A stretch of 64,000 bases of DNA from Marinobacter halotolerans. Lineage in GTDB: Bacteria > Pseudomonadota > Gammaproteobacteria > Pseudomonadales > Oleiphilaceae. Both the position numbers and the translations under genes were made by a program. The stretch covers positions 992,001 through 1,056,000 of the forward strand of contig NZ_VMHP01000002.1 in NCBI RefSeq assembly GCF_008795985.1, read 5' to 3'. This document shows positions 3,865 through 15,538 of the stretch, piece by piece; position 1 is the stretch's first letter; each line of letters begins with the position of its first letter. The notes beneath the pieces are model-generated. The model was given only the letters and a program-made list of their open reading frames with translations. It was not told where the DNA came from and did no database searches.

Positions 3865-3905
3865 AATGGCAATACCGTGAGATGTCGACGCCATTGTGGT
3901 AAAAT
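3865..3905 (+). promoter_or_regulatory. Candidate promoter/operator of the toxin-antitoxin operon
   Basis: An inverted repeat, AATGGC at 3865-3870 and GCCATT at 3890-3895, sits directly upstream of a TAAAAT -10-like hexamer (3900-3905) and 27 bases before the antitoxin start. Antitoxins of this family commonly autoregulate by binding such repeats. The assignment here is inferred from position only. Confidence 0.3.
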
Positions 3906-3931
3906 TAATGTGCCAAATGCCGGGAGGTTTT

Positions 3932-4438
3932 ATGTCAGCAATCACCGAGAAAAAACAAAGCCCCAAAAAGCACGTTGGGCCCGCCAAGGCGAATATAAAA
4001 GCCGTGTACTCGGGTCGAGATGCCGCGAAAGCTCATCGCGGAACCGCTACGGGCAAGTTTGTGTTTTCCGGCGTCCAGGGCGTGAAAAAGATCCGCCGCG
4101 GCGGCAAGGCCAGAGACCTGGATGCTTTGAAGGCCCTATACGACATAGACGACGCCACGCTGTGCAAGCTGTTGGATATTTCCCCGCGCACCCTGGTTCG
4201 ACGTCGTGAAGAGGGCGTCGTGAACAAGGCGGAACTGGATCGGGTAGCCACTTTACAGCTGGTGATGCGTAACGCTGTGGAACTGTTTGAAGGTGACCGG
4301 GAAAAGGCACAGCGCTGGCTGAAGTGTCCGGCGCGAGCTTTGGAGCACCAGTGCCCGATTGATCTGCTGGATACCGAGGCCGGTATTCGTATGGTACGGG
4401 ATCTGATCGGGCAGCTTGAGCACGGCGTGTACCCGTGA
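3932..4438 (+). CDS. Xre/MbcA/ParS-type antitoxin (DUF2384) of a RES-Xre pair
   Basis: A 168-residue antitoxin candidate. The ATG at 3932 is chosen because GGGAGG at 3922-3927 precedes it; a longer open frame upstream lacks such a site. The N-terminal third is basic and probably disordered. The middle holds an Xre-like helix-turn-helix (LCKLLDISPRTLVRRREEG), and the C-terminus has the DUF2384 region (ELFEGDREKAQRWLKCPARALEHQCPIDLL, then a short C-terminal helix) that in this family contacts the toxin active site. The stop codon overlaps the toxin start (GTGA), so the two are translationally coupled. It probably neutralises the RES toxin and represses the operon. Confidence 0.88.
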   Translation: MSAITEKKQSPKKHVGPAKANIKAVYSGRDAAKAHRGTATGKFVFSGVQGVKKIRRGGKARDLDALKALYDIDDATLCKLLDISPRTLVRRREEGVVNKAELDRVATLQLVMRNAVELFEGDREKAQRWLKCPARALEHQCPIDLLDTEAGIRMVRDLIGQLEHGVYP

Positions 4439-4899
4439 AGGCGTACCGGATCACCAAACGGAAGCACAAGGACACCGCGTTTTCTGGATTTGGTGCGCGC
4501 CAATATGGAGGGCGCTGGAATCTCCCCAATTATCCCGCGGTATATCTGTCCGAAAGTATTGCACTTGCTCAGTTGGAAACACTGGTGAATCTGGGTGACG
4601 AGGACAGCCTGAAGAACTATGTGCTGCTCCAGCTTGAGGTGCCGGACAATCTGGTTATGGTCCTGGCAGACGACGCTTACCCGAAAGACTGGAAAGGTAC
4701 ACGAGTGTCCGCGGGCACCCAGGAGATAGGGACTAACTTCCTCATGGACGGAGCGGCGCTTGCACTAGCAGTCCGTTCATGTGTTGTGCCGCAGGAATAT
4801 AATCTCGTTTTTAATCCGGAACATCCTGACGCAGAAGCGGTTATCGAAGAGGGCGTTGAGGTAACGTTCCAGTTTGATGATCGGCTGGTTTCTGATTGA
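4435..4899 (+). CDS. RES-domain toxin (NAD-depleting family)
   Basis: A 154-residue RES-domain protein, the toxin half of the pair. It starts at a GTG at 4435 that overlaps the antitoxin stop. Family landmarks are visible: GGRWN near residue 25, VYLSESIALAQLETLVN near 38-54, the central DW.GT segment, and the AALALAVRSCVVPQEYNLVFNPEHP stretch with the conserved serine. Characterised RES toxins degrade or consume NAD+, arresting growth until the antitoxin recovers. The reading frame is intact. It ends 92 bases before the inverted-repeat end of the mobile segment, so the pair borders the island but lies outside its apparent boundary. Confidence 0.88.
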   Translation: MKAYRITKRKHKDTAFSGFGARQYGGRWNLPNYPAVYLSESIALAQLETLVNLGDEDSLKNYVLLQLEVPDNLVMVLADDAYPKDWKGTRVSAGTQEIGTNFLMDGAALALAVRSCVVPQEYNLVFNPEHPDAEAVIEEGVEVTFQFDDRLVSD

Positions 4900-4975
4900 G
4901 GGGTTTCTATTGTGTGGTTAATATTGTATTTAACATAATATACATTATACGCAGTACGATATACGTTTGAATAAT

Positions 4976-4990
4976 ATTATTACGGATTTT
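4976..4990 (+). repeat. 15-bp direct repeat, copy 1
   Basis: ATTATTACGGATTTT occurs here, immediately outside the left inverted-repeat tip, and again at 5533-5547 upstream of the recombinase pseudogene. The copies are identical over 15 bases and 557 bases apart. This could reflect a recombinase core site, a target sequence or an internal duplication. Confidence 0.75.
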
Positions 4991-5067
4991 TGGACGACCA
5001 CAGAAAGTGCTAAAGAATAGCCACAGAAAGTACTAAATTTTCACAGGAAGTACTAAATTCGTCGCCC
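4991..5067 (-). repeat. Left-end repeat cluster (three 17-bp copies)
   Basis: Copies of CCACAGAAAGTRCTAAA lie at 4998-5014 and 5021-5037, and a variant, TCACAGGAAGTACTAAA, at 5041-5057. They are packed with 3-6 bases between them. The innermost copy is followed by TTCGTCG, matching the CGACGAA that borders the innermost right-end copy. Probable transposase-binding sites. Confidence 0.85.
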
Positions 5068-5595
5068 ACTTTTCTATATCCATGATTTTGAACGTTTTTA
5101 GGTTCTTTCTCGAATAGCGCTTATGGGACGTTCAGTGCCCTGGATTATGGCGGTTAATTTCGATTGTGGAATGGCGTCAGCTCCGACGGAACTCCGCAGT
5201 TTTAGATAATGCCCTAGGCGCGAAAGGTATTAAGCGATGCCAGTGAAAGACATCCCCTAGACCTCTCGATAAGTATCAGGTGAATCGGAGCGCGGATTTT
5301 TGTTATGGCAGCCTCGCAACCTCTCTGTGATATGAGAGAAAACTAGGAGCGGTGTTGTCGATAATCCGGTTTAGACGAGATCCGTCTCCTGACTATTGAA
5401 AACTGTAGTCGTCAGCTCTCGAAGAAATCGACGATACGACGCGCAACCAATGTCATTTTGGGATGATTGGGTCTGCCTGGGTGCCCTGAGCACAATAACT
5501 CTCTACTTAACTTCAGAAATCCGTTAAAAAACATTATTACGGATTTTATCTTTACCCTCTCCTTGCATCCTTGCGGCTTACCGGGAGCTTATCCG
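5068..5595. other. AT-rich left interior of the mobile element without a confident gene
   Basis: No reading frame here has a convincing start, a ribosome-binding site and family similarity together. A short ATG frame at 5237 stops after seven codons. The stretch contains the second copy of the 15-bp direct repeat (5533-5547). An open frame leading into the recombinase extends back to 5467, but its first 43 residues look like translated non-coding sequence. Confidence 0.6.
5533..5547 (+). repeat. 15-bp direct repeat, copy 2
   Basis: Second exact copy of ATTATTACGGATTTT (first at 4976-4990). It sits about 50 bases before the likely start of the tyrosine recombinase pseudogene, a usual place for a recombinase recognition site, although this is not demonstrated. 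Confidence 0.75.
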
Positions 5596-6400
5596 ATGAG
5601 CAAAACCGGCCAGGCACGCGTGCTCACGCCCGAACAGTTCGCCCACCTCTTGGGTGAGATCAAAGAGCATCGTTACCCGGAAAAGAATACGGCTCTGGTT
5701 CAGATCAGCTTCAAGCTCGTACTTCGAGTTCAGGAGATCGCGCTACTCCAGATCAAAGACGTCGCCGAGCTTGGCCCTGGGAGTTCGGGTTCTGGTCAGC
5801 GCTCTTTCAAACTTAAGGAAATCCTTGCGTTGCCTGCGGCTTACACTCAGGGTGCCGATGCGTTGAAGCGGTCCAAATCCGCGTATCAGCGGCGTCGGAT
5901 CAGTTTTAGTGTGCACGACTTCCACCAGCTTGTTCAGCAAATTGAAACCATGGCCAAGGCCGGCGCCGAGATCAAACCTGAGGATTTTTATCCTGAGGTC
6001 AAAAAACATCGTGGTAAATCGCGTGATCTTCCAATGGATGACATCGCGCTGAGAACTGCTATCGAAAATCACCTTGCAATCCGCTTGGCCGCGCGACCTT
6101 CAGTGAAAAAGACCGATCCCCTATTCCTGACTCAAAAAGGAGGCCCCTATTCTCCCAATACTCTCCAGGAACACTTCGCTCTCATGCAGCGGCATTGGGC
6201 AGGTATTGAGCGAGCCAGCTCCCACAGTGGCCGAAGGACTTTAATGACGAATATCATTCATGAACAAAAGAAGTCCGTTAAAGGTCGCTCAAAAGATTGC
6301 TGGCCATGTGTCACCGTCAACAACGCTTATCTACGAAGAATCTCCTGAGGAGTCGTTAAAGGAAGCGTTGCAGGATGCCGGCTACAAATATGTTGGTTAG
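5596..6400 (+). pseudogene. Tyrosine recombinase/integrase, frameshifted near the C-terminus
   Basis: The intact part runs from an ATG at 5596 (GGGAG upstream) and encodes a phage-integrase-family catalytic domain: an early KLVLRVQEIALLQIKD segment (box I region, conserved Arg), then HSGRRTLMTNI (the box II H-x-x-R). Around 6275-6280 the frame shifts by one base. The original frame runs on in non-family sequence to 6348. The next frame instead reads KVAQKIAGHVSPSTTLIYEES, with the expected GH and catalytic Tyr, to a TAG at 6398-6400. One extra base therefore separates R-H-x-x-R from the Tyr, and the protein should be inactive unless the base is a sequencing error or is bypassed. It may once have served cargo integration within the element. 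Confidence 0.85.
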
Positions 6401-6590
6401 TCCAACACCCGAATAACATTTGAAGCGCAGTCGTTATTAGTTTCCACATGCCTCGAATGCCCTTGGTCTGCGTACATGACCGGTTAAAATTTTCAGCTCA
6501 CTTGTCATGAAACTTTTTGATAGCGCCGGATACAGATAGCTGCCCTGCCCCTTCGACATCGACTCATATGACGACTCCGACCCACCCAAC

Positions 6591-7049
6591 GTGGATTTCA
6601 TTGCTAATGGGATACGCCAGACTGAAGAGCGAGGTTGGGTTTGGTCGCAAAGCGAACATTCATATTCGGCGATAACGCGTAACCGGTACCAGAACGTTAG
6701 CCAGGTCTTCGATCGTTTAAGACTCGAACAACATCCTGACAAGACATTTATTGGCAGGATCGAAAAGGGTTTCGATTTTCTGGGCTATCAGTTTGGAGAA
6801 GGTAAACTCACTGTTTCAGCACGAACACATCAGAACCACATTCGTCGCTACACCCGGCTTTATGAGCAGAAGCTACGCCAGCGCTCTTCACGAGAAGATA
6901 TACTGGCGCGCCTTGAGAGGTATCGACGTCGCTGGATCCAATGGACCTTTGCAGGATTACAACCATCGACTTTACACGTAGACCTGCTACATGACTTACA
7001 GGGTTTTACGATGAATTCGGCGCTTCAATCCCAGCCCCAGAAGACCTAG
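6591..7049 (+). pseudogene. Reverse transcriptase (group II-like), C-terminal fragment
   Basis: From about 6691 this frame encodes the thumb-side end of a bacterial reverse transcriptase of the group II-intron-like type: VFDRLRLEQHPDKTFIG, then GFDFLGYQF and a basic C-terminus (RLERYRRRWIQWTFAGL). The palm domain with YxDD is absent. The upstream 100 bases in frame do not resemble the family, and an in-frame TAG lies at 6537. It is thus a 5'-truncated remnant. The frame runs 54 bases into the 3' end of the oppositely oriented PEP-CTERM gene. No intron RNA domains V/VI were recognised by eye. Confidence 0.7.
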
Positions 7050-7691
7050 CGACAACAACGCGAAGGTGCCGGGCTCGGGCACAGACACCGACCTGACAAG
7101 GGCAACGCCATAATCACCATAGGTGATGTTCGTAGAAAAAGGAAATATCGCAAAAGTGGTGCGTGCGTCGCGTAATTGCGGATATGCAGGATTTAACACG
7201 GTTGTATCTTCATCAACCCGAACAAAGCTGAAGAAATCGCCGTCGGCAGCTGAGCCATACCATGCGGCAGCTCTGGAATATGGGTCAGCCGTGCCGTAAT
7301 CATTATCATCCTCGAAAGCGGTGCGTCCGAAAAGGTCTACGAAATCACGGTGTGGGCCAGTTTCAGCGGTATTCCATGACGTGTCAACGGTCTGGCCCGG
7401 ACTTTCGATAGTTGAAAAATTCAGTCCGAAGGTAAAAGAGTTGAAAAGGGCGGCCATTTCAGTGTACGAAGCTAAACGCCAGCCGTCGCTCGCATATGTC
7501 CCAAGTGCGGTGTCGATAGACTGTCCGTCAGTTTCACTCCACTGTAACCATTCTAATCCACCGCCCTGTACGATATTGGATGAAGAAACGCGCGTGTAAC
7601 CAGTGTCGTGGTCGATAAGAACCGCGTGAGTCGTAACGGGCATGGCCACGATGCACGCGGCCAACAAAATCTTTTGGATACACTTATTCAT
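6996..7691 (-). CDS. PEP-CTERM sorting domain protein
   Basis: A 231-residue exported protein with an N-terminal signal peptide (ending near THA, residue 23). Its C-terminal sorting signal has a VPEPGTFALL motif, a hydrophobic helix (SLGLLGLGL) and a basic tail (KRRIHRK). Such proteins are processed by exosortase and are usually surface or exopolysaccharide-associated. The body (DGWRLASYTEMAALFNS, then repeated aromatic and Asp residues) resembles DUF1566-like extracellular domains. No exosortase or PEP-CTERM assembly gene is in the window. It lies inside the inverted-repeat-bounded segment, overlaps the RT remnant at its 3' end and has an AT-rich upstream region. It may be cargo. Confidence 0.8.
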   Translation of the reverse strand: MNKCIQKILLAACIVAMPVTTHAVLIDHDTGYTRVSSSNIVQGGGLEWLQWSETDGQSIDTALGTYASDGWRLASYTEMAALFNSFTFGLNFSTIESPGQTVDTSWNTAETGPHRDFVDLFGRTAFEDDNDYGTADPYSRAAAWYGSAADGDFFSFVRVDEDTTVLNPAYPQLRDARTTFAIFPFSTNITYGDYGVALVRSVSVPEPGTFALLSLGLLGLGLKRRIHRKTL

Positions 7692-8362
7692 TGCCTAACT
7701 CGCTATTTGGGTGGTGTGTGCGATTCGACATCCATGTCTCAGAATTAATTACTCCCAAATGTATCGGCAAAAAGCGTACCGGAATCTATATATAACTGTT
7801 TTTTATAACAAATATAATTTTTAGTCTTTTCTTGTATGGATAGAGTGTAAATTAGCCCGACACTTTACGCCGTTGATCAGCGCCGCAAGTCATCGTTTAT
7901 CAGTGCAGATAATTGCTTTTATTGAACTGCGAAAATAGAGAGGAAGAGCATAAATATCACCAACGACCTGCCGCATTAGCCAACCTCACTCGCAGCGGTT
8001 TCAGCAGCAGGCTCTTCAAATAAGACAATATTCTCGGACCCGACTCCTGCCGCTGGTCGAGGCCTTGGCAGTTCTGGCCCTTGAGGCCCATTTGTGACCT
8101 GACCTGCTTTTTGGACTCCTCGACAAAAAGAGAGATGAACTCGGTGCCTAGACCCCCCTCTCTCTCATCCCTTTCCAGCACAGACACTCATCCCACTACT
8201 AAAGCTATAAGGACCGCTTTTATCGGGCATTAGGCATTTGTGAAAAACGTATCGGCAAGTCATTCGAATGTTCGCTTTTGTTTAATAGCGTCCCTTGCTA
8301 CAAATGCCTGTTGCTCGCCCCTAATCTTTCGGTTCCAGAGAGACTAATCCGAACCCTGAGTC
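7692..8362. other. Gene-poor right interior of the mobile element
   Basis: The first 170 bases are very AT-rich and probably hold the promoter of the PEP-CTERM gene. A minus-strand frame at 7957-8187 could encode 76 residues but lacks a ribosome-binding site and recognisable similarity, so it is not called. GGCATTTGT (8233-8241) and ACAAATGCC (8300-8308) form a long-range inverted repeat of unknown meaning. Confidence 0.55.
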
Positions 8363-8511
8363 GGACGACGAATTTAGCACTTTGTGTGGAAACCAGAATG
8401 ACCACCCTATTCTCGAATCTACTTTAAGTTTGTTTAGCACTTTGTGTGGATTTTGGTGGGTAAGATACTGATGTTTGGTTGCAGAGGTTTAGTACTTTGT
8501 GTGGTCGTCCA
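8363..8511 (+). repeat. Right-end repeat cluster (three 17-bp copies)
   Basis: TTTAGYACTTTGTGTGG occurs at 8373-8389, 8433-8449 and 8488-8504, all in the same direction and each the inverted complement of the left-end copies. The innermost is preceded by CGGACGACGAA; the outermost is followed by TCGTCCA, closing the terminal inverted repeat at 8511. Confidence 0.85.
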
Positions 8512-8635
8512 GTACTCAGGTTATTAATACGATTTTCTCAACCTCGGACACTCGTTCGGACTAGATCTATGCCTAGGCCTTTGCTTCTGCAAAGGTGTCC
8601 GGTTTAAATGGGGCTACTACAACAACGGATTGCCC

Positions 8636-9946
8636 ATGAACCAGGACGACAGAACACCCCACCGGGTCGCACCAAAACTCGCATCGTTGGCGCTCCTCCT
8701 GCTGGCAACCCTGATGATGTACGTAAGCCAGGGATTAACGCATACGCTGGTTCCGCTTCGGCTCGCCAGTGGCTCTGTCTCAGGTTTTGTCACAGCGTGT
8801 TATTTCGTGGGGTTCGGCCTGGGTGCTTTTCTGGGCCCCCTGCTTATCCAGCGCGTTGGCCATATCCGCGCCTTTGGCGGCCTGTTGGGTATTGCCATCT
8901 TTGCCGTGTTGTCCCTCGCGCTGATCGACGCCCTCTGGTTTTGGGGAATGATCCGACTACTGCATGGCGCAAGTATTGCTGCTGTAGCAGTTGTGGTTGA
9001 AGCCTGGTTGGTCAGTGCCTCCGGCCCCGGGGCACGCGGACGGGTACTTGCAGTCTACACCCTCGCAGTTTACGGAGGCATTGGCATCGGGCCACTGTTT
9101 CTGATCTTCTTGTCAGACACTCTCTGGCAACCATTCAGCGTCGCGGCAATCGTCCTGTGCCTGGCAGCGGTGCCGGTACTGTTCTGGCGCACCGACGCGC
9201 CGGCAATACCCACCCGTGCCCCAGCCAGCTGGCGACGCATCGTAAATGTCTCGCCAGTCAGCCTGGCAACGGCCACTGCGGCCGGCTTTTCGGGGGGTGC
9301 CCTTACCGCACTGGGGCCGATCTACGCGCTCTCATTGGGCCTGGACACGACCGGCGTCGCGCTTATGATGAGCGTGCCCGTTATTCTCGGCCTGATTCTG
9401 CAATGGCCAGTGGGAACGCTATCCGACCGTTTCGAGCGCCGCCGGGTAATGTCCGGCGCAATACTGGTCAGCGCCTGTTTCGCACTCACGCTCATCTGGG
9501 GTCAGAGCCTGGGATTGGTCGCGATCTACTGCCTGCTGGCGGGTCTCCACGGTATTCTTTACGCGCTTTACCCCCTCGCCCTCGCCCATGCTAACGACCG
9601 CGTCGGGACGCCCACCGATACCGCTGACATCGGTGCCGGGCTACTGTTGGGCTACGGTATAGGTGCGGCGGCGGGACCCGCCATTGCTGGCGGCGTTGCT
9701 CTTGCTATGGGAGCTGAATCAGGATTCCTCGTGGCCATGGTAGCCTTGGCGCTGACGGGCTCCTACATCCTGCTGGATGTTCACCGCCATGCCCGGGTCG
9801 CCATTGTCGATAAGGGCGCTTACACCAACCTTCCTTCCTCGACGCCGGAGGTGTTTGAACTGGAGCCGCGGACCGTACCCGATAACGTGACTGAAAACGA
9901 CCTAACCACTTCCCTCACCGATGAGCAAAAGGGCCCGAATTTATGA
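8636..9946 (+). CDS. MFS transporter, YcaD-like
   Basis: A 436-residue major facilitator with about twelve hydrophobic segments. Sequence resembles the YcaD/UMF-type family: an N-terminal MYVSQGLTHTLVPLRL helix, GFGLGAFLGPLLIQRVGHIRAFG covering the loop 2-3 motif A region, and a second-half equivalent, WPVGTLSDRFERRRVM. The extra hydrophilic C-terminal tail (residues 390-436) is acidic and Thr-rich. The ATG at 8636 is preferred over a TTG two codons earlier; neither has a strong ribosome-binding site. A CCTTTGC-TTCT-GCAAAGG hairpin lies in the leader at 8578-8595. The substrate is unknown. The gene sits between the right element end (8511) and a lone repeat copy (10246), so it may have been mobilised. 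Confidence 0.85.
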   Translation: MNQDDRTPHRVAPKLASLALLLLATLMMYVSQGLTHTLVPLRLASGSVSGFVTACYFVGFGLGAFLGPLLIQRVGHIRAFGGLLGIAIFAVLSLALIDALWFWGMIRLLHGASIAAVAVVVEAWLVSASGPGARGRVLAVYTLAVYGGIGIGPLFLIFLSDTLWQPFSVAAIVLCLAAVPVLFWRTDAPAIPTRAPASWRRIVNVSPVSLATATAAGFSGGALTALGPIYALSLGLDTTGVALMMSVPVILGLILQWPVGTLSDRFERRRVMSGAILVSACFALTLIWGQSLGLVAIYCLLAGLHGILYALYPLALAHANDRVGTPTDTADIGAGLLLGYGIGAAAGPAIAGGVALAMGAESGFLVAMVALALTGSYILLDVHRHARVAIVDKGAYTNLPSSTPEVFELEPRTVPDNVTENDLTTSLTDEQKGPNL

Positions 9947-10045
9947 TGGTCAGGGGGAAGTCCACATTACACTTCTGGTCAGCCCGATACCCTGGTTGAG
10001 CATATACTCTTATGGTTATCCATTCTGACCCCAGGAGGTTTGGAC

Positions 10046-10217
10046 ATGGCGACTCCCAGCCGTGAGGAGCTTCTGGATGAGCGCCAACCTGGCTGTTGAT
10101 GGCTTCAGCATGGCGGTGAGCAACTACGAGGCAGGCCAGGCACAATTGGCTCAGATTGCTAGCGCTAAAAAGGTCGAACTGACCTGCTCCCTTTTATCCA
10201 AACCACTCTCTGACTAG
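10046..10217 (+). pseudogene. Small frameshifted reading frame of unknown identity
   Basis: AGGAGG at 10033-10038 is followed after seven bases by an ATG (10046) encoding MATPSREELLD before the frame runs into TGA. A second frame beginning at an ATG at 10077 carries MSANLAVDGFSMAVSNYEAG and continues to a TAG at 10215-10217. Together they read as one small protein of about 55 residues broken by a one-base shift. I do not recognise the product. The quality of the translation signal suggests this was a genuine gene start. Confidence 0.35.
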
Positions 10218-10234
10218 GAAGGGCCACATCCAGG

Positions 10235-10268
10235 CGGACGACGAATTTAGCACTTTGTTTGGTCGCCC
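10235..10268 (+). repeat. Lone copy of the element-end repeat
   Basis: GCGGACGACGAATTTAGCAC at 10235-10254 continues as TTTGTTTGGTCGCCC. The core 10246-10262 (TTTAGCACTTTGTTTGG) matches the right-end motif with one change, and the flanking CGGACGACGAA matches that of the innermost right-end copy. It is a seventh copy, 1.7 kb outside the segment, in the same direction as the right end. Confidence 0.8.
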
Positions 10269-10305
10269 AAACGGACTCAACTCACCTGCTTTGCGATCAC
10301 ATTCC

Positions 10306-13084: not shown

Positions 13085-14800
13085 TCACGACGAGCAGCTA
13101 TAGTGTGACAATCCACCAACATCAAAGAACTCGGGTGGCTTCAGCCTGTAGTATTTCGTCTCTATACCCTCCGATTGCTCGGCGTATGGCTGCGTCATCA
13201 CGTCCTGCAGCTCTCGAAGCAAAGTGTAATCCCCCGCTGCTGCTCGCTCATAGGCAGGCGCGACGAACCACTCTTTCAGACTATACTTCGGGTTCACGAG
13301 CTTCATCTGACGGGAAAGCTCTTCACGTTTGCCGGGGCTTAGGCGCGATTGCCAATCTGTCAGCCACGCTGACCAGCGTTTGTCCATCCCATCGGGGTCT
13401 GCGTCATAAGCTCGGCCTTTGTAAAAGCTCTTCTTGAGCGGCTCAATGTCTTCCGGCAACGATGAGAGTTCCCGGAAAAATAGCGTGTAGTCCACGGGCG
13501 TTTGCATCATCAACGTGGCCAGTTCGCGAAACAACGCCGAGTCAAATGCGTTGAGTCCGAGCTTGTCAGCCCACATCTTCTCCATCTGCTCTTGCATCAC
13601 CTTGGGAAAATCACCTTGAATCTCCTCCAGTTGCTGCAAGTAGTCTGGATGCCCTGTCAATAACGGCCGAACCGCCGAACAGAACGATTGGAAGTTGCGT
13701 TCCGCCGCTGCTGGCTGGTTGAGGAACGCAAAGTGTTGGCCGCCCCCGGTCCATGGTTGGAACTGAGGATTGAATGCATCGCAGAACCCAAAGGGGCCAT
13801 AGTCGAGCGTGAATCCGCCCACCGCACAGTTGTCGCTGTTGAAGTTGCCCTGGCAGTAGCCAACACGGATCCAGTTCGCAATCAGCGAGGTCAGCCTGCC
13901 GCGAAACTCACGTGCAAGCAAAACCACTTTTTCGGCGGTACCCATTGTTTGTTTGCTCAGGTCACGGTATTCACGTTCAATCACGTGCAGGACGATTTGC
14001 TCAAGCTCCTGAATCGCGTTCGGATGTTCCTGCTTGCGGGCACGACGACCAAAGAGCTCTAGCTGCCCTACCCTAATAAAGGACGGTGCAACCCGCGTGG
14101 AGATGGCAACCGGCTCGGAGATAAGCACATCCGGATCAAGTGAGTGTGAGCCCTCCGAATACCAGGGACGCCTGACAGTCTCGGTTTTCGACACGTACAG
14201 GCTTAAAGACCGCGAGGTGGGCACACCGAGCGCATGCATGTGCTCCTGTGCCAGGAATTCCCGCACACTGGACCGCAAAACGGCCCGGCCGTCGCCGCCG
14301 CGGCAGTATGGCGTGCGCCCTGCCCCTTTCAATTGCATTTCCCAGCGCTGCCCGTTGATGACAGCCTCGAGCACCGAAATAGCGCGACCGTCGCCGTAGC
14401 CATTGCCGGTCTGGAACGGACACTGCTGGTAGAATTCGTTGCCATAGATAGAAAGCGCGTAGCCACAGGCCCACCCGACCTTGCGCAAAGGCTCCGGAGC
14501 CCGGGACAAGTCACCCGAGAACATGCGCACGAAGTCATCTGACTGCGCCAGACTATTGGCAAGACCCAGCTGCTGAAACAGATTTTCGCTATGGGCGACG
14601 TATTCTGGGCTTTCGATGGGCGTGGGCTTGACTGGAACATAGTGGCCCGAGAAAACCTGTCTTGGCGCATGGTCGGCTCCGCTTGCCCTCCCTTCCGGAT
14701 CGCAGTTGAGCGTGTCCATGAATGAATAGTCTGCCAACGGTGCGAGATCGTCGAGGGTCGCGACAGTTTTGGGTATTTCCCGGTGACGTCGCGTTACCAT
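13085..14800 (-). CDS. selO: Protein adenylyltransferase SelO
   Basis: A 571-residue pseudokinase-fold enzyme of the SelO/YdiU family, which transfers AMP from ATP to Ser/Thr/Tyr of target proteins and is linked to redox stress. Signature segments are present: [20 protein letters not shown] near residue 155, [32 protein letters not shown], and [14 protein letters not shown] (the metal-binding DYGPF). The C-terminus ends CSS, with cysteine at the position taken by selenocysteine in some homologues. Length is somewhat above the 480-550 of many relatives because of the N-terminal 70 residues; a later in-frame start is possible. A single gene with a hairpin beyond its 3' end. Confidence 0.95.
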
Positions 14801-14974
14801 AGGGGCTCCTCATACATTGGTTTGATTATGGGTAACAGTTTGAGTGTACATTATTTGCGTCTACGACTGCGTTCAGTAGGCTGATTGCAGCCAATCTTGA
14901 ACTTAGCGCGTATGAGTAAGTCTCATAGCGTGAAATGCAACGTTCTTTTTATCGACAGCACATAAGGACAACAA

Positions 14975-15538
14975 ATGAAACTGCAAAACAAATCGCGTAT
15001 AGGACCTTCTCTTGCTCTTTGCCTGGGGCTCCTCTGCACTGCATCCTTGGCCAACGCACATGAAACGTCGACGGGATCTCCTTCAGGCCCAGACGCGGGT
15101 CAGGCCGGCGGCGACAAAGCGGCTGGCATGAATCGCCATCACTCTTACGGCGATGACCATAATGGACACCACGGCAAGAACGGATACTCCGGTCATCACG
15201 GCAAGAGCGGTCATGGCGGGATGCAGACGGCCCCCACCATAGAATTGGATCTTGATGCTGATCAGCTAGAAGACATTGCTGAGATTCAGCGGGAACTTCG
15301 CTCAGATCTAACGGACCTGAAAGTTGAAAGGTACGAAGCATCGCTCAAGCTTGAGGAACTCTACGCCGCGGAAGAGCTGGATGCCGGCGACATTGTCGAT
15401 CAACAGCAAAAGGTTTTTGACGTCATCAAGGAAATCACGGAACTGCAGGTGGAAGCCCAGCAGGACATCCGCGATCTGTTGACCGACGAGCAGAAAAATA
15501 AGCTGCTGCAGTCGGGTGACTGGCTCATGCCAAACTAA
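14975..15538 (+). CDS. Spy/CpxP-like periplasmic protein with His-rich linker
   Basis: A 187-residue exported protein (signal peptide ending ANA, residue 28). Residues 54-82 form a His/Gly-rich stretch (HHSYGDDHNGHHG) that could bind copper, zinc or nickel. The C-terminal half is a long helical region with the Spy/CpxP/CnrX signature LTDEQ near residue 168 and heptad-like charge (ELRSDLTDLKVERYEASLKLEELYA). Family members are chaperones or metal sensors of the envelope. The stop codon lies in an 8-bp hairpin, CTAAACCC-ATT-GGGTTTAG (15535-15553). It precedes the oxygenase pair by 63 bases; co-transcription is possible. Confidence 0.8.
   Translation: MKLQNKSRIGPSLALCLGLLCTASLANAHETSTGSPSGPDAGQAGGDKAAGMNRHHSYGDDHNGHHGKNGYSGHHGKSGHGGMQTAPTIELDLDADQLEDIAEIQRELRSDLTDLKVERYEASLKLEELYAAEELDAGDIVDQQQKVFDVIKEITELQVEAQQDIRDLLTDEQKNKLLQSGDWLMPN

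What the first reader, a model, noticed from the sequence alone, without database searches (positions are those of the whole stretch)
4991..8511. Inverted-repeat-bounded 3.5-kb segment with three-copy repeats at each end but no transposase
The tips are TGGACGACCACA and its exact complement. Each end carries three copies of a 17-bp motif in opposite orientation, dense on the left and spaced on the right. IS21 and Tn7/Tn5053-type elements use such multi-site ends, yet no matching transposase or ATPase is encoded between them and no target duplication is visible. The cargo is a broken tyrosine recombinase, a reverse-transcriptase fragment and a PEP-CTERM gene. It may be a non-autonomous element moved in trans, or the wreck of an unfamiliar one.
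Basis: partly seen in the sequence, partly recalled or inferred. Interest (0 to 1): 0.7.

Follow-up and report, generated by a model that had tools for sequence, protein, structure and literature searches.

The report
Transposon remnant docked at chromosome dif
The 3.5-kb segment looks like a transposase-less member of a Tn7-like transposon family of marine bacteria that settles at a fixed distance from dif, the site where bacteria separate joined sister chromosomes, so an odd repeat-bounded scrap points to a transposon family with an unusual and widely available landing place.

Summary
The repeats are real. They are the two ends of a Tn7-like transposon family of Marinobacter: a compact R end (4991-5066) and a long L end (8362-8511), three sites each. 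Elements of about 33 kb in two sister species carry the same ends, 5-bp target duplications and a divergent tnsA-tnsB-tnsC-tnsD-type operon. The window copy has no transposase and no TnsB relative was found in its genome: a non-autonomous, partly decayed member.

In 38 of 116 Marinobacter genomes with a dif match, an end stands 30-60 bp from dif; of 39 such ends 34 are R, none L, 5 unclear. Two elements without TnsB (1.6 and 7.0 kb) at dif have exact 5-bp duplications, so movement in trans is likely. In G076 dif lies beside selO without the 8.1 kb that separates them in the window.

dif-hunting IS (ISAjo2/IS1202) and res-hunting Tn5053 are known; my searches showed no TnsABCD-type family using dif. 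New variant of a known kind; how dif is sensed is inferred.

The parts
4928..4955 (-). dif (XerC arm 4945-4955, spacer, XerD arm 4928-4938), the docking site; outer edge of the XerC arm is 35 bp from the R tip
   Evidence: 25-mer within 1 mismatch, single in the genome; coordinates; arm scheme as in Table 5 of PMC10132070
4967..4990 (+). half of a tyrosine-recombinase core site between dif and the R tip, direct repeat of 5524-5547
4991..5066 (+). R (dense) transposon end; sites at 4998-5014, 5021-5037, 5041-5057
5516..5547 (+). full recombinase core palindrome upstream of the recombinase gene
5596..6400 (+). tyrosine recombinase gene, broken by a frame change near its 3' end
6591..7049 (+). 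fragment of a group II intron reverse transcriptase/maturase
   Evidence: E 1.1e-6, below curated cut-off
6996..7691 (-). PEP-CTERM protein gene, cargo
8362..8511 (-). L (spaced) transposon end; sites at 8488-8504, 8433-8449, 8373-8389; conserved shell reaches 8267
8630..9946 (+). MFS transporter gene, probable cargo of a second, R-less element
   Evidence: position between the L end and the L relic
10246..10269 (-). single-site L-type relic of a second element
13085..14800 (-). selO, the neighbour on the far side of the inserted DNA; next to dif in G076
   Evidence: PF02696; synteny

Best explanation
4991-8511 is a non-autonomous, decaying member of a Tn7-like transposon family whose chromosomal attachment site is dif. 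Proposed working: TnsB (DDE transposase) and TnsA (nuclease) supplied by a full element bind the three sites of the R and L ends; TnsC (ATPase) and a TniQ/TnsD-like selector bring the complex to dif; insertion falls about 35 bp outside the Xer core, mostly on the XerC side, R end facing dif, with a 5-bp duplication. Repeated insertion at one spot builds head-to-tail cargo islands between dif and selO. Shown by sequence: the ends, the operon in relatives, distance and orientation, duplications in some elements, a relative lacking the DNA. Inferred: that this operon moves these elements, that it acts in trans on cargo-only copies, and that the selector reads dif or Xer-bound dif.
For: Same L and R ends around tnsABCD-type operons with duplications ATCCT (G006) and ATTAG (G017). 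TnsB identity: D214, D319, E356 invariant in 9 of 9, Mu-transposase C-terminal weak matches in 7 of 9, profile best hit PseTnsAB E 0.0021. TnsD: profile best hit TniQ E 0.0027. Ends at dif in 38 of 116 genomes, 34 of 39 ends R and 0 L, 31 of 35 XerC-side ends at 36-41 bp. TnsB on the dif contig in 12 of 14 TnsB-bearing genomes, 1.3-89 kb away. Elements without TnsB, with exact duplications, in G093 and G120. Relative without the DNA: G076. Shell shared with the G023 element, cargo different.
Against: No target duplication at the window copy. Most elements with both ends lack an exact duplication. 78 of 116 genomes show no end at 30-60 bp from dif. Alone, the TnsB and TnsD proteins reach no curated family cut-off; structure models are poor. 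Four ends lie on the XerD side. G076 has a degenerate end on the other side of dif, so it is not a pristine site. Of four other-genus genomes with dif on the TnsB contig, I read 5-7 kb at dif and saw no end next to dif in G287 and G417. No transposition was tested.
Confidence: 0.88

Rival explanations
1. Chimera: R end from one insertion and L end from another, joined by deletions within a dif-docked array; the 3.5-kb unit itself never moved.
For: Flanks ATTTT and GTACT differ; an L relic further right shows that the array has decayed; cargo 6679-8266 has no match among fetched loci.
Against: The R shell (84%) and L shell (95.5%) both match one 7.1-kb element of G023, as expected for one element with exchanged cargo.
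Confidence: 0.4
2. The tyrosine recombinase near the R end, not a Tn7-like machine, moves these segments beside dif; the multi-site ends are regulatory.
For: Recombinase gene and core lie near R ends; half cores lie beside dif in 10 of 116 genomes, 9 at exactly 16 bp; G034 and G135 have core and recombinase directly at dif without an R end.
Against: Exact 5-bp duplications at the tips fit a DDE transposase; many R ends at dif have no half core and no recombinase gene nearby (19 of 36); the same ends bound tnsABCD-type operons.
Confidence: 0.05
3. The terminus merely tolerates insertions, and the closeness to dif reflects lack of essential genes there.
For: Termini are known to collect acquired DNA (general knowledge, not tested here).
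Against: Narrow distance and single end type facing dif.
Confidence: 0.02

Closest known systems
Tn7 and Tn7-like transposons (TnsABC + TnsD/TniQ)
   Same: Four-gene operon of the same kind and order, compact R and long L ends with several ~20-bp sites, 5-bp duplication, fixed distance and orientation to an attachment site
   Different: Attachment site is dif rather than a gene such as glmS (recalled) or comM; TnsB and TnsD are very divergent; tips TGG...CCA rather than TGT...ACA
ISAjo2 group of the IS1202 family (dif site hunters; PMC10132070)
   Same: TnsB-like transposase, 5-bp duplication, one orientation, XerC side of dif or pdif
   Different: Single-gene IS of 1.5 kb, 5 bp from the XerC arm, no TnsA/C/D, tips TGT/ACA; here a multi-gene system with large cargo about 35 bp away
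Tn5053/Tn402 (res site hunters; Minakhina 1999, title seen)
   Same: Tn7-related machinery that docks at a recombination site of its host replicon
   Different: Target is a serine-resolvase res site, mostly on plasmids, and TnsA is lacking (review passage; rest recalled)
Tn6022 TnsF and Tsy (PMC10293859)
   Same: A Tn7-like element and a tyrosine-recombinase element use one docking gene; here both seem to use the flank of dif
   Different: Target is comM; TnsF has lost its catalytic site, whereas both recombinases here keep the Arg, HxxR, His and Tyr positions by alignment; no selector role is shown

Membership tests
Tn7-like transposon (full elements of this family) | TnsA, TnsB, TnsC, TnsD/TniQ-type genes in one operon | tested here: met
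   TnsB and TnsD only by profile, residues and a low-confidence fold, not by a curated cut-off
Tn7-like transposon (full elements of this family) | Ends with several ~20-bp sites, asymmetric R and L | tested here: met
Tn7-like transposon (full elements of this family) | 5-bp target duplication | tested here: met
   G006 ATCCT, G017 ATTAG, G093 ATTCT, G120 CTCGA; G014 and most other elements with both ends do not show it
Tn7-like transposon (full elements of this family) | Fixed distance and orientation to one attachment site | tested here: met
   31 of 35 XerC-side ends at 36-41 bp from the pattern start, 34 of 39 ends R, none L
Tn7-like transposon (full elements of this family) | Tips TGT...ACA | tested here: not met
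   TGG...CCA, with TAG or TGA variants; a recalled and published convention (PMC10132070), not needed for the mechanism
Tn7-like transposon (the window copy) | Encodes its own tns genes | tested here: not met
   no TnsB relative in the genome
IS1202 family (ISAjo2 group) | Single-transposase IS about 5 bp from the XerC arm | tested here: not met
   Operon of four genes; distance about 35 bp
Tn5053/Tn402 | res-site target, no TnsA | tested here: not met
   Target dif; TnsA-type gene present
IS21 | istA/istB between the ends | tested here: not met
   Same ends enclose tnsABCD-type genes
Selection of the target by sensing Xer proteins on dif | Insertion depends on XerC or XerD | not testable with these tools
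   Needs an assay in xer deletion strains

The most novel reading that the evidence does not exclude
A clade of Tn7-like transposons spread through Gammaproteobacteria finds its landing site by sensing the cell's own XerC (less often XerD) bound at dif, a protein-marked and almost universal attachment site, and builds cargo islands at the replication terminus, largely from transposase-less elements moved in trans; the Xer-like 246-aa recombinase encoded beside tnsA may take part in the sensing.
Probability: 0.35. Interest if true: 0.85.

Novelty: new variant of a known kind. Interest (0 to 1): 0.72.

Why it matters
Target selectors of Tn7-like elements are under active study because they allow site-specific insertion. 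dif is present in nearly every bacterium with a circular chromosome, so a selector aimed at dif or at Xer-bound dif would be a portable landing rule. The family joins two separately described habits, res hunting (Tn5053) and dif hunting (ISAjo2), with full TnsABCD-type transposons, and makes it testable whether a transposon can read a recombinase-DNA complex. It also explains how terminus cargo islands form in Marinobacter.

Tried and rejected
IS21: rejected, the same ends enclose tnsABCD-type genes. Random insertion near the terminus: rejected by distance and orientation. Single-strand folding of dif: nothing (z 0.3). Ends next to dif in G287 and G417: none seen in the 5-kb pieces read, although TnsB lies 36 and 89 kb away. 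AlphaFold of TnsB and TnsD: low confidence (mean pLDDT 49.7 and 39.2); TnsD was not fold-searched, and the TnsB fold search rests on a poor model. TnsA profile against solved structures: nothing relevant. Plasmid TnsB relatives: 31 records, two opened; each has a tyrosine recombinase gene several kb away, too common on plasmids to count. Distance test of TnsB to dif: Fisher p 5.7e-15 for 12 of 14 genomes (G093, with dif on another contig, and G510, without a dif match, were left out) and 9e-6 for the four other-genus genomes; it assumes uniform positions and unrelated genomes, so it is only a guide. The chance figures for duplications used denominators 17 and 19 chosen before I set aside chance L matches; I do not lean on them. 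Statements about what is in print rest on searches and on passages of the papers named; many listed papers were not opened, and the library lacks most subscription journals.
Full report
1. What is there. The window carries a 24-bp inverted repeat (4991-5014 and 8488-8511) with three site copies on each side, close on the left (23, 20 bp) and wide on the right (60, 55 bp). With up to one mismatch the 17-mer gives six hits in the own genome, all at window 4998-10262, and hits in 22 of 37 same-genus genomes; the reversed control gives 0 in those 37 and 3 in the other 21 genomes of that search. Alignments of 12 R ends and 19 L-type ends show conserved blocks of about 75 and 150 bp, much longer than the tips; three of the 12 R rows and one of the 19 L rows (the relic at window 10246-10269, which aligns only over its first site) depart clearly from the rest, others in part.

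2. What the ends belong to. In G006 (Marinobacter changyiensis, named through) and G017 the same L and R ends bound elements of about 33 kb with exact 5-bp duplications, ATCCT and ATTAG. Inside lies a four-gene operon: a 229-aa TnsA-type protein (PF08722, just over its cut-off), a 638-aa protein without a Pfam hit at E 0.001 but with D214, D319 and E356 invariant in 9 of 9 relatives, weak Mu-transposase C-terminal matches in 7 of 9 and profile hits to PseTnsAB, retroviral integrases and, weakly, Tn6677 TnsB; a 321-aa AAA ATPase (its G100 counterpart also weakly matches TniB); and a 546-aa protein with zinc-finger cysteines and no Pfam family, whose profile best matches TniQ (E 0.0027). The low-confidence model of the 638-aa protein has TnsB, TnsABCD and Mu transpososome entries as its 12 best Foldseek hits. 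I read this as a divergent Tn7-like transposon. The window's genome has no such TnsB at the thresholds used.

3. The target. Reading outward from the R tips showed the same 25-bp sequence, dif, near many of them. dif (up to 3 mismatches) occurs once in each of 116 of 124 Marinobacter genomes, and KOPS-type octamers change polarity there (109 loci pooled: 165 against 12 upstream, 13 against 188 downstream; in the window 1 against 0 on the left and 1 against 10 on the right). In 38 of the 116 genomes a tip-plus-site stands 30-60 bp from dif, 78 show none; 2 hits occur in 6.43 Mb of simulated sequence. These are 39 ends (one genome has one on each side): 35 on the XerC side, 31 of them 36-41 bp from the start of the 25-mer, which is 3 bp inside the 11-bp XerC arm, and 4 on the XerD side at 34-36 bp; 34 are R, none L, 5 unclear. 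In the window the R tip is 35 bp from the XerC arm. Outside the genus, G037 has an R-type end at 41 bp and G299 a diverged three-site end at 40 bp (my count); in G324 an AAA gene in the tnsC position ends about 250 bp from dif with short repeats between. TnsB relatives were found in 9 of 124 Marinobacter genomes and 5 of 369 class genomes; 12 of these 14 have dif on the same contig, 1.3-89 kb away. G093 has dif on another contig; G510 has no dif match.

4. Copies without TnsB. Ends at dif (38 of 116 genomes) are commoner than TnsB genes (9 of 124). Two elements without TnsB, 7,011 bp in G093 (which has a TnsB on another contig) and 1,607 bp in G120 (R end, one larger ORF of 259 aa, L end; no TnsB in that genome), have exact duplications ATTCT and CTCGA. 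One search lists 17 loci; in two (G006, G017) the listed L tip is a chance inner match because the true L end lies outside the piece, and some of the other 15 have weak L tips. Exact duplications: 2 of those 15, plus G006 and G017; G014 has none. The window element shares its R shell (4990-6678, 84%) and L shell (8267-8511, 95.5%) with the 7.1-kb element of G023, while the RT and PEP-CTERM part has no half-length blastn match among the fetched loci: same shell, different cargo.

5. Relative without the DNA, and arrays. In G076 the stretch matching window 4921-4989 (dif and flank) is followed after 10 bp by selO, which in the window starts at 13085 (PF02696), so 8,095 bp with both elements are absent. 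G076 carries a degenerate end on the other side of dif, so it is an empty variant of this side, not a proven ancestral state. In G136 a 3.2-kb R-L element fills the interval between dif and selO. Tips of neighbouring elements stand 5 bp apart in L021, L023 and L039, as expected for repeated insertion at one spot.

6. The tyrosine recombinases. The broken recombinase of the window belongs to a family found near R ends and preceded by a palindromic core. Half of that core also lies beside dif in 10 of 116 genomes, 9 at exactly 16 bp. In the window the two copies (4967-4990, 5524-5547) flank the R end as direct repeats; in G135 the order is dif, core, recombinase gene, L end, with no R end seen. 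I infer that this recombinase has an integration site of its own beside dif and may delete R ends; this resembles the TnsF/Tsy pair at comM (PMC10293859, passages) without showing kinship. A second, 246-aa Xer-like recombinase lies beside tnsA; it is 95-98% identical between three elements whose TnsB are 60 and 35% identical to the first, occurs in 19 of 124 genomes at E 1e-20 and keeps the Arg, HxxR, His and Tyr positions by alignment to XerD-type structures. Its role is open.

7. Comparison. dif hunting by a TnsB-like transposase is in print for ISAjo2-group IS of Acinetobacter (PMC10132070: abstract, sections 15 and 20 and passages; PMC9455709: one passage), and res hunting for Tn5053 (reference title). 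The held main texts of two large Tn7 surveys (PMC8649781, PMC10293859; passages read) do not contain the whole word 'dif' or XerC/XerD. Searches, with passages of PMC12907356, PMC8754128, PMC8987985 and PMC11472951, showed no TnsABCD-type element at dif; other listed papers were not opened. Hence: a new variant of a known kind.

8. Verdict. Whether this 3.5-kb unit itself ever jumped or is a chimera of two insertions is undecided, because the duplication is missing. How dif is recognised is inferred from geometry alone: about 35 bp outside the core on either side, with strong preference for the XerC side.

Noticed in passing
L042 (pMAQU01 of M. nauticus VT8) 14866-15098: R- and L-type ends only 233 bp apart, a miniature of the family, about 30 bp from another palindrome (CTATGTCAAATACTGCTAAGTATTTGACATAG) and near an annotated tyrosine recombinase gene: perhaps a plasmid resolution site as target.
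   Followed up: partly
L033 (G009:C6) 1130 and outward: An R-type end about 40 bp from a second, dif-like site with another spacer, possibly a plasmid dif; the contig was not typed.
   Followed up: no
L022 8718-9455, L024 11463-12200, L198 6286-7023: 246-aa Xer-like recombinase, 95-98% identical beside tnsA genes of strongly diverged elements: recent exchange or strong constraint.
   Followed up: partly
window 4967-4990 and 5524-5547: Direct repeats of a recombinase half core flank the R end; recombination between them would remove the R end, as the layout in G135 suggests.
   Followed up: partly
window 8395-8425 (L end): A TTCTAGAA palindrome between L sites 2 and 3 is conserved in most aligned L ends; function unknown.
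   Followed up: no
window 5058-5070 and 8362-8372: The inner border of both ends reads TTCGTCGTCC or similar, a reverse likeness of the tip.
   Followed up: no
window 3896-4899: Xre-type antitoxin and RES-domain toxin pair directly on the other side of dif.
   Followed up: no
L239 14206-14853 (pMAQU02): A PEP-CTERM gene also lies near L-end matches on this plasmid, like the cargo of the window element.
   Followed up: no
L022 9523-13460: OLD-type nuclease and UvrD-type helicase genes as cargo next to the tns operon; they look like an anti-phage pair (recalled, not searched in PADLOC).
   Followed up: no
L240, L241 (plasmids of Janthinobacterium and Azonexus): Distant tnsB-type operons, each with a tyrosine recombinase gene some kb away; worth testing for docking at plasmid resolution sites.
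   Followed up: no
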